From: Veillonella montpellierensis DSM 17217
Lineage (GTDB): Bacteria; Bacillota; Negativicutes; Veillonellales; Veillonellaceae
NCBI RefSeq assembly: GCF_000426745.1
Contig: NZ_AUFY01000002.1
Span: forward strand, 95,837-159,836
Direction of reading: 5' to 3'
Length of the DNA stretch: 64,000 nucleotides
Shown: positions 3,107 to 37,650 of the stretch, in pieces
How the letters are laid out: every line of letters begins with the position of its first letter
How positions within the stretch are numbered: the stretch's first letter is position 1
The notes under the pieces: model-generated
The model's input: the letters and a program-made list of their open reading frames with translations, nothing else
What the model was told of the DNA's origin: nothing
Databases searched by the model: none
Program-made: the position numbers and the translations under genes

Positions 3107-4558
3107 TTACACAACCTCCCAAAACTTTTTAGATAAAGATTCTCGTTTATTTAATAATGTACCTAGTGTGCTAATATATACATTCACATCTTTTGGCATA
3201 TGTTGCTTTTGTTGACGATAATCTGGCCCACGCATCCATTTTGACGAACTACCTGGACCTATCGATAAAACAGGTTGCCGTTCTTCCATTATGTGAATAT
3301 TATAAATACATTCTTTATTAGGCAACGTATATCCTATATTTTCCAATTGCCCCGTCATATATTGTTGTCGGTATAAATAATATGGAATATAACCTTCTGC
3401 TTGAAGGCGCTCTTTCGTGTAAGCTACCATTTCCTTAACCAACATTTCACTAGGCATGTCCGTCCTTCCTATACCATTGTATAAAGGACTTCCTTTTTTT
3501 AATGCTAACGTATGAATTGTAACATTTTCAGGGTGTACCTTACAAATATAATCTATATTTTCTATCATATGTTGCATAGTTTGTGTGGGTAAACCGGCAA
3601 TAAAGTCCATATTAATAGAAAATGTAGTATGATTGCGTATATATGTATATAAAGATGTAATCGATGAAACTGTATGTCCACGACCAATTATTTTTAAAAT
3701 AGAATCTTGCAAACTCTGCGGATTAATACTCACACGATTTACACCACATCGTTGCATATCCATGATTTTCCTTTTAGTGATAGAATCCGGTCTTCCTGCT
3801 TCTATAGTATACTCACAATCATTAGTCGCTAGTGATGTAAAAGACTGCAAAATCTCACAAAATGTATCTTCGTCCAAGCTAGTAGGTGTACCACCGCCCA
3901 TATAAAGGGCAGGAATGTCTAATTGATACCTTTCTATCAACGACTTCATATGTTCTATATCATCTATAAAAGATTTTTTAAAATTCTGTATATGCGGATA
4001 ATCTTGAATGAGTCCATAAGGAAAGGAACAATATGTACATCGTGTTTGACAGAAAGGAATACCTCCATATATTGCTACTCGTTTATCATTAGAAGATTCT
4101 TGCTCAATATATGGCCTTTGATAATGTGCTATAGAAGCTAATAAATCTAACTTTTCATCACTAATGAAGAATTCCTCTTTTAACCGTTTATGTGTTTCTT
4201 CTATTGAACATGTATCTAAATATTTATGGTACAACTTAGTAGGTCTAACACCAACTAGAGTCCCCCACTCGCTATGGATATCTAGTCCCTGATATGCTCG
4301 TAAATACAATAATAATGCTTGACCCAATTTACGTCGACCTAATGCAGTGAACTCATCCACGAATACTTTTGTATGCGTAAGATACGTATGCGTATCATCT
4401 AGAATGTCTATTTTTAACGTATATTGATTATTTAGTTCTTCGCCAGTAATAATAACTTGTGGAGATTCTTTATTAGAAAATAGACCAGCAGCACCACAAT
4501 TATGAGCCACTACCGAACCTAGCGGTAGTGGCCCCTCATAATGATATCCATTAAGCAT
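3107..4558 (-). CDS. hemZ: HemZ-type oxygen-independent coproporphyrinogen III oxidase-like radical SAM protein
   Basis: Radical SAM enzyme of the HemN/HemZ family (483 residues), probably acting in anaerobic heme synthesis. The [4Fe-4S]/SAM motif is CQTRCTYC (about residue 175), followed by the family signature ALYMGGGTPTSL (about 220). The N-terminal 160 residues form the extra domain typical of HemZ, and the C-terminus has the SIGPGSSSKW segment seen in this family. The start overlaps the end of the fur-family gene by 8 bases, so the two are translationally linked. Substrate is inferred: HemN-like proteins also include heme chaperones, but the N-terminal domain favours HemZ. Confidence 0.88.
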   Translation of the reverse strand: MLNGYHYEGPLPLGSVVAHNCGAAGLFSNKESPQVIITGEELNNQYTLKIDILDDTHTYLTHTKVFVDEFTALGRRKLGQALLLYLRAYQGLDIHSEWGTLVGVRPTKLYHKYLDTCSIEETHKRLKEEFFISDEKLDLLASIAHYQRPYIEQESSNDKRVAIYGGIPFCQTRCTYCSFPYGLIQDYPHIQNFKKSFIDDIEHMKSLIERYQLDIPALYMGGGTPTSLDEDTFCEILQSFTSLATNDCEYTIEAGRPDSITKRKIMDMQRCGVNRVSINPQSLQDSILKIIGRGHTVSSITSLYTYIRNHTTFSINMDFIAGLPTQTMQHMIENIDYICKVHPENVTIHTLALKKGSPLYNGIGRTDMPSEMLVKEMVAYTKERLQAEGYIPYYLYRQQYMTGQLENIGYTLPNKECIYNIHIMEERQPVLSIGPGSSSKWMRGPDYRQQKQHMPKDVNVYISTLGTLLNKRESLSKKFWEVV

Positions 4559-28100: not shown

Positions 28101-28304
28101 ATACCCTCCATTATATTCTCAATACATATATTCCTTTACCATACACGTTGATTCATATATTCCTACACAGATACTATAAATTTATTACCACTATACTATT
28201 CCCACCACAAGTGCACGCTTCTATAATGATTTATCATAATTTACACTTCCTCCTTTCCATTTATTTGCAGTTTTATTTTTACTTATTTTCCTTATAAAAC
28301 GCAG

Positions 28305-35476: not shown

Positions 35477-35552
35477 TATAACACCTCACTTCTAATATGC
35501 TACTAATCATATTTATTATACATGACATGTTCTTATAATGTAAAATAATGTA

Positions 35553-35871
35553 TTATCTAAAATCTAATAATACTCTATAATAGTCAACATGTGTGACATA
35601 GACTCCTAACGATGTAGGTAAAACGTACTTTGTTATATATGCCTGAGATATGTAAAATCCAATATTTTCTGCTATGTTATTATATCTATTGGCATACTGC
35701 TGATGCGCCTTTAAAAAAGCATCAAAACTTATAACCTTTCTTCTGTAAAACCAATCTCTATCAACTTTATGATTTTGCGTTCCCCCTGTTACCATGGTGA
35801 AAATTGACGTATCAGCTTATGTTTTATGCCTAAGTTCCATAATACTCTACAAAATAAACAATTCCGTTACA
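35553..35871 (-). pseudogene. Degenerate DDE-type transposase fragment (C-terminal part, frameshifted)
   Basis: Read on the minus strand, one frame gives LGIKHKLIRQFSPW and then a stop. The next frame continues GTQNHKVDRDWFYRRKVISF and AFLKAHQQYANRYNNIAENIGF. Joined, this matches the end of integrase-core transposases (IS3/IS481 type: GIKHKLIRPxTPRHNGKVERSHRxDQ...FYN...RYNN). A degraded CNG stands where the DNG motif is expected, near 35863-35871. The N-terminus and catalytic core are gone, so it is inactive. Family assignment is by eye only. Confidence 0.65.
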
Positions 35872-36080
35872 TCGCCCAATTAGTAAATTCTCATTCATTA
35901 CCTACCTGTACCGGCTCTATTTTAAAATCCATTCGACTTTCTAACTTGATTAAAATTTTCCTTGTATTAATTACACTTTTCCTGTATACAATAGCTAATA
36001 CACGTTATTTAAGTACTTATCGATAACCATATATGGTACTAATTAACACTATTTGTTGTTATAATGAGAGAAAATTAAAA

Positions 36081-36157
36081 GGAATGAGTTCAGTAAATAC
36101 TGAACTCATTCCTAAAATAGCCTAGTAATATCTATCCAATAAAATGAATAGAGATCA
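36081..36157 (-). repeat. Double-hairpin intergenic element, copy 1 (terminator-like)
   Basis: A perfect 15-bp stem (36081-36095 with 36098-36112), followed on the plus strand by a weaker TCTAT/ATAGA hairpin ending near 36157. It closely resembles 38381-38459: both share AATGAG...CTCATT, then TATCT(A/G)TCC, AAAAT and AGATCA at matching places. On the minus strand the strong stem is followed by a T-rich run, so it can terminate minus-strand transcripts. It may be the original ferredoxin terminator, displaced by the element described below. Confidence 0.7.
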
Positions 36158-36227
36158 ACACGTCTCAATCAACTTTTCTTATTTTATTAATAAAATATTA
36201 CATCGTTGCATCGTAACATATCTATAC

Positions 36228-36243
36228 TATTCAGCAGAGATAA
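36228..36243. repeat. Putative att core, left copy
   Basis: TATTCAGCAGAGATAA, identical to 37487-37502. Read on the minus strand it repeats the end of the ferredoxin coding sequence, with TAG in place of TAA as stop. Confidence 0.65.
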
Positions 36244-36291
36244 TTTAAAAACTCTAATTATACGCATGATTACTGCATTCCTTTAATTTTA

Positions 36292-36302
36292 GGTTGAGCA
36301 AC
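36292..36302. repeat. 11-bp direct repeat near left end (possible integrase arm site)
   Basis: GGTTGAGCAAC, repeated at 37387-37397 in the same orientation. Here it is also part of the palindrome GGTTGAGCAACC and lies beside a second palindrome, TGCAAACTTTGCA. Confidence 0.4.
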
Positions 36303-36331
36303 CGTTGCAAACTTTGCAGAGATTTAAATGG

Positions 36332-36565
36332 CTAATCACATTCTGCCGCGTCTTCTGTTACACGATTTAAACCGGATTCTTTTCCATACACCCGTTCCAT
36401 TCCTTGACGTGTTACCAGCCATGTTCCCCCTGACTTTCTGCATTCATCTTCTGTAAAGCGTGGCGGTAGATTCCGTTGTCCTGTACATGCTTTTTTTACA
36501 GTTTCCTGACTAATTTTCCATAATTCACTTGCTTCTTTTGTTGTAAATATATCGTCTATTTTCAT
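36332..36565 (-). CDS. Small helix-turn-helix protein
   Basis: 77 residues. FTTKEASELWKISQETVKKA (about 8-27) reads as a MerR/excisionase-like winged-HTH recognition helix, followed by ECRKSGGTWLVTRQGMERVYG (about 42-62), a pattern common in small HTH proteins of mobile elements. It could be an excisionase, a repressor acting on the palindrome in the upstream promoter, or an antitoxin. Its ATG overlaps the stop of the upstream 48-codon frame (ATGA), so translation is coupled. Last gene of the three-gene cassette. Confidence 0.8.
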   Translation of the reverse strand: MKIDDIFTTKEASELWKISQETVKKACTGQRNLPPRFTEDECRKSGGTWLVTRQGMERVYGKESGLNRVTEDAAECD

Positions 36566-36708
36566 TTCAAAATTCCTCGTCTAAACATCAACCACACTAA
36601 TACTCCGCCTGTAATAAAAGCCTTTGCTGCTTCTTTATCAAAATCTATAAAATATATCGACCAAGCTGTAAGCATTATTAATGCAATATCTATCCATGTT
36701 ACTTTCAT
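36562..36708 (-). CDS. 48-residue putative membrane peptide
   Basis: Begins MKVTWIDIALIMLTAWSIYF and ends VLVWLMFRRGILK. There are two short hydrophobic stretches (about 6-21 and 31-41) around an acidic/basic middle. It has a good ribosome-binding site (AAGGAG, 8 bases upstream) and its stop overlaps the HTH gene start. I recognise no family. Small size and coupling suggest a real product of the cassette, with unknown role. Confidence 0.65.
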   Translation of the reverse strand: MKVTWIDIALIMLTAWSIYFIDFDKEAAKAFITGGVLVWLMFRRGILK

Positions 36709-36772
36709 TTGTTATTCTCCTTTGTTATAATGAAAGTGTTAGGAGAGGTTTCCCTCTCCCTTCACCGCTCTC

Positions 36773-36889
36773 TTATCGTTTTGCTTTTCGACGGCGCTTA
36801 CGATTTGAGGGCTTTTCTTTTGGCTTTCTAACTGCTAGCCATATTGTCACTAGTAAAGTTATTAGCCATTCTATATCTGACTTATCCAT
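36773..36889 (-). CDS. 38-residue membrane peptide with polybasic tail
   Basis: Starts MDKSDIEWLITLLVTIWLAV: an acidic N-terminus and a single hydrophobic helix (about 8-20). It then ends in a strongly basic tail, RKPKEKPSNRKRRRKAKR. A full GGGAGGTGAT ribosome-binding site lies just before the ATG, and the promoter at 36920-36948 is directly upstream. Together these argue that it is translated. Similar compositions occur in phage holin-like and type I toxin peptides, but I cannot assign one. Confidence 0.65.
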   Translation of the reverse strand: MDKSDIEWLITLLVTIWLAVRKPKEKPSNRKRRRKAKR

Positions 36890-36919
36890 TTCTATCACCT
36901 CCCTTCACCTTATGCTTTT

Positions 36920-36948
36920 ATTATATACCGTTTTCGGTATATTATCAA
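36920..36948 (-). promoter_or_regulatory. Consensus promoter with palindromic operator in the spacer
   Basis: Minus strand TTGATA (36943-36948), 17-base spacer, TATAAT (36920-36925). A near-perfect 11+11 palindrome centred on ATACCGTTTTCGGTAT (36926-36939 core; arms 36920-36930 and 36935-36945) fills the spacer and touches both hexamers. A repressor bound here would block RNA polymerase. The HTH protein of the cassette is the obvious candidate. Confidence 0.75.
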
Positions 36949-36979
36949 TATTTTTCTTCCTATTTTTACAAAAAAATAA

Positions 36980-37016
36980 AGCCTATCAACCTAGATATAT
37001 TCTAAGTCGATAGGCT
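36980..37016. terminator. Bidirectional terminator inside the element
   Basis: Stem AGCCTATC/GATAGGCT (36980-36987 and 37009-37016) with an A run before and a T run after. It insulates the cassette promoter from the region to the right. Confidence 0.8.
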
Positions 37017-37105
37017 CTTTTTATATTATATTAATCGTTTTAAATCTTGCGACGAATCGTGTGAAATTCGTTATAAACATAAGTAATTGCTACATTTTAA
37101 TCATG

Positions 37106-37255
37106 CTAATTCTTTACAGCAAGATATATAACCGTTCCACCCAATAAAATATTAAGTAGCTTACTTGTTCTACGGTCTTTGTTCGCTCGCTCCAGTTCTT
37201 TCTTTTGCTCGTTCAAGTATACTTCTGCTTTTATTAATGAGTTTTGCGTTATCAT
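37106..37255 (-). CDS. 49-residue peptide with coiled-coil and C-terminal membrane helix (tentative)
   Basis: Reads MITQNSLIKAEVYLNEQKKE then a charged helix and a hydrophobic end (LLNILLGGTVIYLAVKN). The charged-helix-plus-anchor plan is like small phage or plasmid membrane proteins. No convincing ribosome-binding site was found and the frame stays open upstream, so it may be a truncated 3' end of a longer gene cut by the integrase relic. Confidence 0.4.
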   Translation of the reverse strand: MITQNSLIKAEVYLNEQKKELERANKDRRTSKLLNILLGGTVIYLAVKN

Positions 37256-37259
37256 CAAA

Positions 37260-37412
37260 CGGATCGTTGACCACTCAAGTAAGGATAATATTACGCAAGA
37301 GGTTTACACTCATAAAACTGTACAACAATATATTGATGCGGTTAACAGATTACCCCACGGTGAAGCACTCATAAAGGGTGAGCAACGGTTGAGCAACGCT
37401 GACGAAATGTAG
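37260..37412 (+). pseudogene. Tyrosine recombinase (phage integrase) C-terminal remnant
   Basis: The plus strand reads RIVDHSSKDNITQEVYTHKT followed by QQYIDAVNRLP. This matches the end of tyrosine recombinases (LGHSS...T...YTH), including the catalytic Tyr in VYTHKT and the usual short tail. Everything upstream of the HSS motif (the RHTFAT and other catalytic residues) is missing, so it is inactive. It ends 75 bases from the right att-like repeat, the normal place for an integrase gene. Confidence 0.7.
37387..37397. repeat. 11-bp direct repeat near right end (possible integrase arm site)
   Basis: GGTTGAGCAAC, same as 36292-36302, inside the last codons of the integrase remnant. Confidence 0.4.
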
Positions 37413-37440
37413 TGATTTTTGCCAATTTTGAAAAATAAAA

Positions 37441-37470
37441 AAGCCAGTAAACATAAGAGTTTACTGGCTT
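37441..37470 (-). terminator. Terminator of the ferredoxin gene
   Basis: Perfect stem of at least 12 bp (37441-37452 and 37459-37470), followed on the minus strand by TTTTTTATTTTT, 16 bases beyond the ferredoxin stop. If the element model is right, this terminator came with the element. Confidence 0.88.
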
Positions 37471-37485
37471 TCTACGTTTGCGTTC

Positions 37486-37650
37486 TTATTCAGCAGAGAT
37501 AACAGAGCAAGGACAAACAGATTCGCAAGAACCGCAGTCGATGCAAGTGTCATTAATTTCATATTTTGTTTCGCCTTCATTAATAGCACCTACTGGGCAT
37601 ACAGAAGCACAAGAACCACATTTAATACAACCGTCAGCAATAACTCTCAT
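37486..37650 (-). CDS. 2[4Fe-4S] ferredoxin
   Basis: 54-residue clostridial-type electron carrier. Two cluster motifs, CIKCGSCASVCP (Cys8, 11, 14, 18) and CIDCGSCESVCP (Cys36, 39, 42, 46), are complete; an extra Cys48 follows. A GGAGG ribosome-binding site precedes the ATG by about 7 bases. Likely electron carrier between pyruvate oxidation and hydrogenase or other anaerobic enzymes. The last 16 bases overlap the att-like repeat, so the gene's 3' end appears to be an integration target that was restored after integration. Confidence 0.95.
   Translation of the reverse strand: MRVIADGCIKCGSCASVCPVGAINEGETKYEINDTCIDCGSCESVCPCSVISAE
37487..37502. repeat. Putative att core, right copy (within ferredoxin 3' end)
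   Basis: TATTCAGCAGAGATAA, identical to 36228-36243; on the minus strand it encodes the end of the ferredoxin. Confidence 0.65.

What the first reader, a model, noticed from the sequence alone, without database searches (positions are those of the whole stretch)
36228..37502. Ferredoxin 3' end used as integration site by a 1.27 kb remnant element
Seen directly: a perfect 16-bp direct repeat brackets the unit, and one copy is the last codons of an intact ferredoxin gene. A tyrosine-recombinase C-terminus (HSS...YTHK) sits 75 bases from that copy. An 11-bp direct repeat lies near each end. Known: tyrosine integrases commonly target gene 3' ends (usually tRNA genes) and restore the coding end. 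Inference: a protein-coding ferredoxin gene served as attB, and the element has since shrunk to a regulator-plus-peptide cassette.
Basis: partly seen in the sequence, partly recalled or inferred. Interest (0 to 1): 0.72.

Follow-up and report, generated by a model that had tools for sequence, protein, structure and literature searches.

The report
Collapsed prophage scar in ferredoxin gene
Beside an intact ferredoxin gene in a Veillonella-family bacterium lies a 1.26-kb stretch in which pieces of the two ends of a 28-kb bacterial virus meet at a shared 10-letter repeat, so such a virus likely inserted into the gene's last codons and later likely lost nearly all of itself in one deletion.

Summary
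A perfect 16-bp repeat (36228-36243, 37487-37502) brackets 1,259 bp; one copy is the last codons of an intact ferredoxin gene. (1) Relatives are empty: ferredoxin to lspA is 107-143 bp in 11 of 11 same-genus genomes with the gene, 2,009 bp here. (2) Arm-type integrase repeats GGTTGAGCAAC lie inside both ends (three sites, none elsewhere in 64 kb); an apparently intact 36-kb prophage in a relative has them at nearly the same spacing (core-to-arm gaps 48/90 bp, here 48/89). (3) Viral contig IMGVR_UViG_2602041677_000003 (28,294 bp) carries a whole integrase matching 163 of 164 bp of the remnant; its other end matches 36773-37258 (84%, with one 56-bp gap). (4) The two matches overlap by exactly 10 bp, TTATCATCAA, at the join, so a short-repeat deletion of about 28 kb is likely. 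The residue keeps both att ends, an HTH_59 (excisionase-like) gene, two small hydrophobic-peptide genes and a terminator. Integrase-tail remnants at the ferredoxin end in three sister-genus genomes suggest the site was used in at least two lineages. A decayed prophage with a ferredoxin attB: ordinary in kind, unusually well resolved.

The parts
37486..37650 (-). Intact 54-aa 2[4Fe-4S] ferredoxin gene; its 3' end is the inferred integration site
   Evidence: joining the two flanks keeps the same 54-aa frame
37487..37502 (.). att core, integrase side (16-bp direct repeat, ferredoxin copy)
36228..36243 (.). att core, far side (16-bp direct repeat)
37438..37473 (.). Terminator-like hairpin between integrase and ferredoxin, phage-type (CCAGTAAAC..GTTTACTGG)
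   Evidence: the exact stem pattern occurs in 3 of 28 family genomes: here, beside the G013 prophage integrase, and at the ferredoxin end of G004
37376..37397 (+). Two tandem arm-type repeats (GGGTGAGCAAC, GGTTGAGCAAC) inside the integrase coding end
   Evidence: same place in the G021 prophage
36292..36302 (+). Arm-type repeat GGTTGAGCAAC at the far end
   Evidence: 48 bp from the core here and in G021
37249..37412 (+). Integrase remnant: about the last 53 codons of a tyrosine recombinase of about 363 aa
   Evidence: 163 of 164 bp identical to the whole gene in IMGVR_UViG_2602041677_000003
37249..37258 (.). Join: 10-bp TTATCATCAA, present at both inferred break points of the relative (421-430 and 28131-28140)
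37106..37258 (-). Cut-off C-terminal tail (about 50 aa) of a 154-164-aa coiled-coil protein encoded beside the phage endolysin
   Evidence: endolysin neighbour scanned in G021
36978..37018 (-). Terminator-like hairpin, aligned in five other HTH_59 loci
36920..36948 (-). Promoter-like site TTGATA-17-TATAAT with palindrome ATACCGTTTTCGGTAT in the spacer
   Evidence: consensus match only; the region has no more promoter-like sites than shuffles
36773..36889 (-). Small gene, 38-aa peptide with a hydrophobic stretch and basic tail, ribosome-site-like leader
   Evidence: my reading; unchanged in the viral contig; no Pfam hit
36562..36708 (-). Small gene, 48-aa hydrophobic peptide
   Evidence: no Pfam hit
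36332..36565 (-). HTH_59 protein, 77 aa, excisionase-like
   Evidence: PF20038 4e-33; phrog_2655 excisionase 1e-17; a relative in Geobacillus virus E2 is annotated excisionase in one record and putative regulatory protein in another

Best explanation
The 1.26-kb unit holds pieces of the two ends of a tyrosine-integrase phage joined at a 10-bp repeat, and it most likely arose when such a phage inserted into the last codons of the ferredoxin gene and then lost about 28 kb between those repeats. Step 1 (inferred): a phage like IMGVR_UViG_2602041677_000003 recombined its attP with the 16-bp end of the ferredoxin gene; the phage-borne copy of those codons, a stop codon and a phage terminator replaced the original gene end, so the protein stayed the same. 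Step 2 (inferred from the exact join): slippage or short-homology recombination between two copies of TTATCATCAA, one in the integrase gene and one in the coiled-coil gene beside the endolysin, removed everything between. Step 3 (predicted): without an integrase the residue is fixed; its HTH_59 and small hydrophobic-peptide genes may still be expressed from their own promoter-like site.
For: Empty sites in relatives. A 16-bp repeat beyond chance. Arm-type repeats at both ends with the spacing of an apparently intact prophage in G021, 35,972 bp core to core, whose scanned proteins are integrase, terminase, portal, capsid, head protease, tail fibre and endolysin. A whole integrase identical to the remnant in 163 of 164 bp, and the opposite end of the same contig matching 36773-37258 at 84% with one 56-bp gap; the two matches share only TTATCATCAA. 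Integrase-tail remnants at the ferredoxin end in Veillonella sp. VA137, VA139 and 3310: 88/109, 88/108 and 97/127 bp identical to the G021 integrase end, the frame ...KKVEQRLSNRIETA* read in VA137.
Against: No genome was found with a full phage at a ferredoxin end; the two contigs nearest to the remnant are trimmed at the integrase stop, so their site is unseen. The contig is not the exact parent: from about 37043 to 37258 it differs more (the 56-bp gap and scattered changes) than before that, and it ends before the 48-aa peptide and HTH_59 genes, so 36228-36772 has no match in it. The G021, G016 and G013 prophage stretches gave no HTH_59 match. lspA lies 752 bp beyond the far core, against 107-224 bp from ferredoxin in 25 relatives.
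Confidence: 0.93

Rival explanations
1. The residue is not dead: both att ends with arm sites plus an excisionase-like gene make it a mini-prophage that a related phage could excise or carry in trans.
For: Both att cores, three arm sites and an intact HTH_59 frame survive. Phage contigs with the fitting integrase exist.
Against: One integrase-tail match and one such terminator in the host genome; its three integrases over the Pfam cut-off did not match the tail query. The integrase is cut off. No second copy was seen.
Confidence: 0.08
2. The unit joins ends of two different prophages that had lain side by side at the ferredoxin site, rather than one prophage with a deleted middle.
For: Mosaic similarity: 36773-37042 has 3 differences in 270 bp to the G062 contig by my count of the alignment, while 37107-37253 is 91% identical over 147 bp to another copy in the host's own genome, C5.
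Against: One contig supplies both break points with the same 10-bp repeat; mosaicism is usual among phages (general knowledge).
Confidence: 0.08
3. A small satellite or insertion cassette that never was a full phage.
For: Small size and clean ends.
Against: Two genes are cut at the same point, both whole in a 28-kb phage contig.
Confidence: 0.02
4. The 16-bp repeat is chance and the region is a lineage-specific intergenic stretch.
For: AT-rich region; two three-mismatch copies of the core lie elsewhere in the window, and 4 of 100 shuffles had as many matches.
Against: 0 of 500 shuffles held more than 12 bp of the core; the att geometry matches a prophage in G021.
Confidence: 0.005

Closest known systems
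HK97-type prophage at G021:C7 (its integrase is 100% identical to that of IMGVR_UViG_2868219145_000001)
   Same: Integrase family, arm repeats GGTTGAGCAAC near both ends, core-to-arm gaps 48 and 90 bp, hairpin between integrase and core
   Different: 35,972 bp core to core, apparently intact, 15-bp core ATAACCACTGTATAG outside any ferredoxin gene, no HTH_59 match
IMGVR_UViG_2602041677_000003 (28,294-bp viral contig, G062)
   Same: Integrase end 163/164 bp; promoter-like site, 38-aa peptide and coiled-coil protein at the other end; both inferred break points
   Different: Phage-type frames between the ends (17.3 of 28.3 kb read; most not scanned); trimmed contig, host site not visible
Streptococcal ICEs at 3' ends of housekeeping genes (PMC4701971, abstract and passages seen)
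   Same: Tyrosine integrase at a protein-gene 3' end; 30 of 73 such elements are there
   Different: Conjugative elements; targets named include rplL, rpsI, lysS, rpmG, guaA; the word ferredoxin does not occur in the main text
Geobacillus virus E2
   Same: HTH_59 relative (40% over 70 residues) near one end of the record, annotated excisionase in NC_009552.3
   Different: Whole phage of another host; annotated putative regulatory protein in DQ453159.1

Membership tests
Cryptic (decayed) prophage | att direct repeats at both ends | tested here: met
Cryptic (decayed) prophage | Phage genes present but broken, whole in a relative | tested here: met
Cryptic (decayed) prophage | Structural genes | tested here: not met
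   None among the frames scanned in 36228-37502; expected after the deletion, since the G021 relative has them
Tyrosine-integrase element at a protein-gene 3' end | Repeat overlaps the gene end and leaves the frame whole | tested here: met
   Occupied and joined empty site give the same 54 aa
Tyrosine-integrase element at a protein-gene 3' end | Unoccupied site in relatives | tested here: met
   11 of 11 same-genus genomes with the gene; G001 and G005 gave only weak ferredoxin matches
Tyrosine-integrase element at a protein-gene 3' end | Integrase recombines at this core | not testable with these tools
   Needs experiment; no full phage at this site found
Phage satellite / mobilizable element | Own intact integrase and a replication or relaxase module | tested here: not met
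   Only the integrase tail remains; no such family among the scanned frames
Excisionase (for the HTH_59 protein) | Sequence relation to named excisionases | tested here: met
   no NCBIfam match
Excisionase (for the HTH_59 protein) | Needed for excision and present in relatives of the phage | tested here: inconclusive
   No match in the held stretches of the G021, G016 and G013 prophages; present at prophage right ends in G004; function not testable

The most novel reading that the evidence does not exclude
The ferredoxin 3' end is a standing attB for a Veillonellaceae phage family, and what survives a phage's collapse is not random: an end module with its own promoter, operator-like palindrome, small membrane peptides and HTH_59 protein is kept between live att ends and guards the cell against, or rides along with, the next phage of that family.
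Probability: 0.08. Interest if true: 0.55.

Novelty: new member of a known kind. Interest (0 to 1): 0.36.

Why it matters
It is a case where a prophage's decay can be read to the base: both att ends and the 10-bp repeat at the join are identified against a phage contig that holds both genes whole. It also adds a ferredoxin gene to the protein-gene 3' ends likely used as phage attachment sites, with traces in two genera, and suggests that the phage brings its own terminator for the gene it enters.

Tried and rejected
Operator as a regulon: the palindrome ATACCGNNNNCGGTAT was sought genus-wide; 3 of 14 genomes have one, and 3 of 14 have a control hit, so no regulon is claimed. DNA-uptake-like use of the terminator stem: AGTAAAC occurs 9 times on both strands of the 64 kb, no dense repeat and no control run. 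Rfam: one match, far below its gathering score. An att-plus-terminator pattern in viral contigs gave 5 stretches, none with a ferredoxin, integrase or HTH_59 match. The pattern core-arm-arm gave 0 viral stretches and 3 named genomes. Far cores of the G016 and G013 prophages were not found in about 38 kb (longest exact matches 11 and 12 bp). A first look at the join with the host's C5 copy and G021 gave only an approximate break, replaced. In one search the G024 row is an artefact of a short contig matching itself. In the integrase survey 3 of 19 loci gave no integrase frame by my search pattern and were dropped; of the 16 left, 0 have a tRNA in the flank, 2 end beside rpsR and 1 beside a yebC-like gene (gene names by my reading). 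In one search six sister-genus ferredoxin loci have no lspA within the held flank and are not counted as empty sites; two of the 25 counted loci are second ferredoxin loci of G019 and G023. PHROGs gave no match for the G021 coiled-coil protein and a weak one for the C5 copy. Literature: 'ferredoxin gene'+'integrase'+'attB' 0 papers; 'ferredoxin'+'integration site'+'tyrosine recombinase'+'prophage' 4 papers, listing only, none about a ferredoxin attB by title; Veillonella prophage searches gave listings only; two other searches gave 0 papers, and searches gave listings, of which one paper was opened for passages.

Full report
What is there. The window lies at G000:C2:95837-159836 of an unnamed 1.87-Mb genome; a sister genus of the same family holds records named Veillonella. 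It has an exact 16-bp repeat at 36228-36243 and 37487-37502. The second copy is the last four codons and first two stop bases of a 54-aa 2[4Fe-4S] ferredoxin on the minus strand. In 500 dinucleotide shuffles of the neighbouring 2 kb no piece of the core longer than 12 bp appeared. Inside the repeat lie, from the ferredoxin side: a terminator-like hairpin (37438-37473), the end of a tyrosine-recombinase gene (to 37412), a cut-off reading frame of about 50 aa (37106-37258), a second hairpin, a promoter-like site, two small genes for hydrophobic peptides, and a 77-aa HTH_59 protein (36332-36565) that also matches a PHROG excisionase family.

Relatives without it. In one search, 25 of 31 relative ferredoxin loci have lspA 107-224 bp after the ferredoxin gene on the same strand (lspA start extrapolated from the alignment; two of the 25 are second loci in sister-genus genomes G019 and G023). 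The other 6, the sister-genus (g2) loci, have no lspA within the held flank. Among same-genus genomes the gene was found in 11 of 13 (G001 and G005 gave only weak matches), and 11 of 11 have lspA at 107-143 bp. In the window lspA starts 2,009 bp away. Joining the two chromosomal flanks at the core keeps the same 54-aa frame with a stop codon.

Integrase architecture. The 11-bp sequence GGTTGAGCAAC occurs at 36292 and 37387, with a one-mismatch copy at 37376, and nowhere else in 64 kb within one mismatch. This is the layout of arm-type integrase sites (general knowledge of the lambda-type integrases). A relative, G021, has an apparently intact prophage whose 15-bp cores lie 35,972 bp apart and whose ends carry the same repeats: the far core-to-arm gap is 48 bp in both, the integrase arm-to-core gap 90 bp there and 89 bp here. 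Its scanned proteins are integrase, terminase, portal, capsid, head protease, tail fibre and endolysin. Seven other integrases of the family share 39-54% identity with the G021 one. Of 16 family integrases examined with their flanks (3 of 19 dropped for lack of a frame), none has a tRNA gene in the flank and 2 end beside the 3' end of rpsR, which also ends in Ala-Glu-stop (gene named by my reading).

The phage relative and the join. A scan of viral contigs with the integrase alignment gave 56 loci. One, IMGVR_UViG_2602041677_000003 (28,294 bp), ends in an integrase identical to the remnant in 163 of 164 bp; a second, IMGVR_UViG_2898788943_000002, matches the same 164 bp at 90%. The other end of the first contig matches 36773-37258 of the window at 84%, with one 56-bp gap: the 38-aa peptide gene, promoter-like site, hairpin and the coiled-coil protein that in G021 lies beside a scanned endolysin. 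In the window that protein and the integrase are both cut at the same place. The two matches share exactly TTATCATCAA, found in the contig at 421-430 and 28131-28140; two further copies lie at 3173 and 27684 of the stretches read. A single deletion of about 28 kb between these 10-bp copies is the simplest reading; it is inferred, not observed. The contig is a close relative and not the exact parent, and it is trimmed, so 36228-36772 has no counterpart in it and its host site is unseen.

Other traces at the same gene end. Three genomes of the sister genus (Veillonella sp. VA137, VA139 and 3310 by the records) carry at the same ferredoxin end, at the same distances of 89 and 100 bp, the two arm repeats (one of them with a mismatch in VA137). 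Their DNA there is 88 of 109, 88 of 108 and 97 of 127 bp identical to the G021 integrase end, and in VA137 the frame reads ...KKVEQRLSNRIETA. Beyond it lies a RhuM-like gene (name from recall), not an integrase. The exact stem pattern CCAGTAAAC..GTTTACTGG occurs in 3 of 28 family genomes: in the window, beside the G013 prophage integrase, and at the otherwise empty ferredoxin end of G004, which may be an older scar or a chance resemblance.

How it works, and what is inferred. Shown: repeats, intact gene, empty sites, arm geometry, pieces of both ends in one phage contig, the 10-bp overlap. Inferred: that the phage recombined at the ferredoxin end, that its own terminator now serves the gene, and that slippage or short-homology recombination made the deletion. 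Predicted and untested: expression of the surviving genes and loss of mobility.

Compared with what is known. Tyrosine-integrase elements at 3' ends of housekeeping genes are well described; in streptococcal ICEs 30 of 73 are there (PMC4701971, passages seen). Decayed prophages are common (general knowledge). No paper in the library held 'ferredoxin gene', 'integrase' and 'attB' together. The case is therefore a new member of a known kind, with an unusual target gene and an unusually exact record of the collapse.

Limits. No full prophage was seen at a ferredoxin gene; the genome collections hold one genome per species; about 600 bp between the far core and lspA remain unexplained; HTH_59 was not found in three of the comparison prophages.

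Noticed in passing
G000:C5:4661-4846, C13:38854-39039, C5:117083-117274, C2:19872-20054: Four further HTH_59 genes in the same genome, one with a stop inside; some stand alone between housekeeping genes by my reading of the frames, as if prophage right ends were left behind repeatedly.
   Followed up: partly
window 35477-36227: About 750 bp between the far core and lspA, with an 80-aa frame (35553-35795) without relatives in the fetched loci; 25 relative loci have 107-224 bp between ferredoxin and lspA.
   Followed up: partly
window 36920-36948: Palindrome ATACCGTTTTCGGTAT sits between -35 and -10 of a promoter-like site; the G004:C1 HTH_59 locus has ATACCGAATTTGGTAT in the same place.
   Followed up: partly
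window 37486-37650: The ferredoxin has Cys where the 21 relatives printed have Val, next to a cluster-binding Cys-Pro and just outside the 16-bp core.
   Followed up: no
L167 (G016:C5) and L174 (G024:C34): Integrases of the same family end 114-123 bp from the rpsR stop codon, suggesting rpsR as another attB; no far core was found for G016.
   Followed up: partly
L002 (G019:C5) and L009 (G023:C29): Two sister-genus genomes hold a second ferredoxin-lspA locus of the window-genus type: contamination or transfer.
   Followed up: no
L057, L058, L061: A RhuM-like gene (name from recall) follows the integrase-tail remnant at the ferredoxin end in three sister-genus genomes.
   Followed up: no
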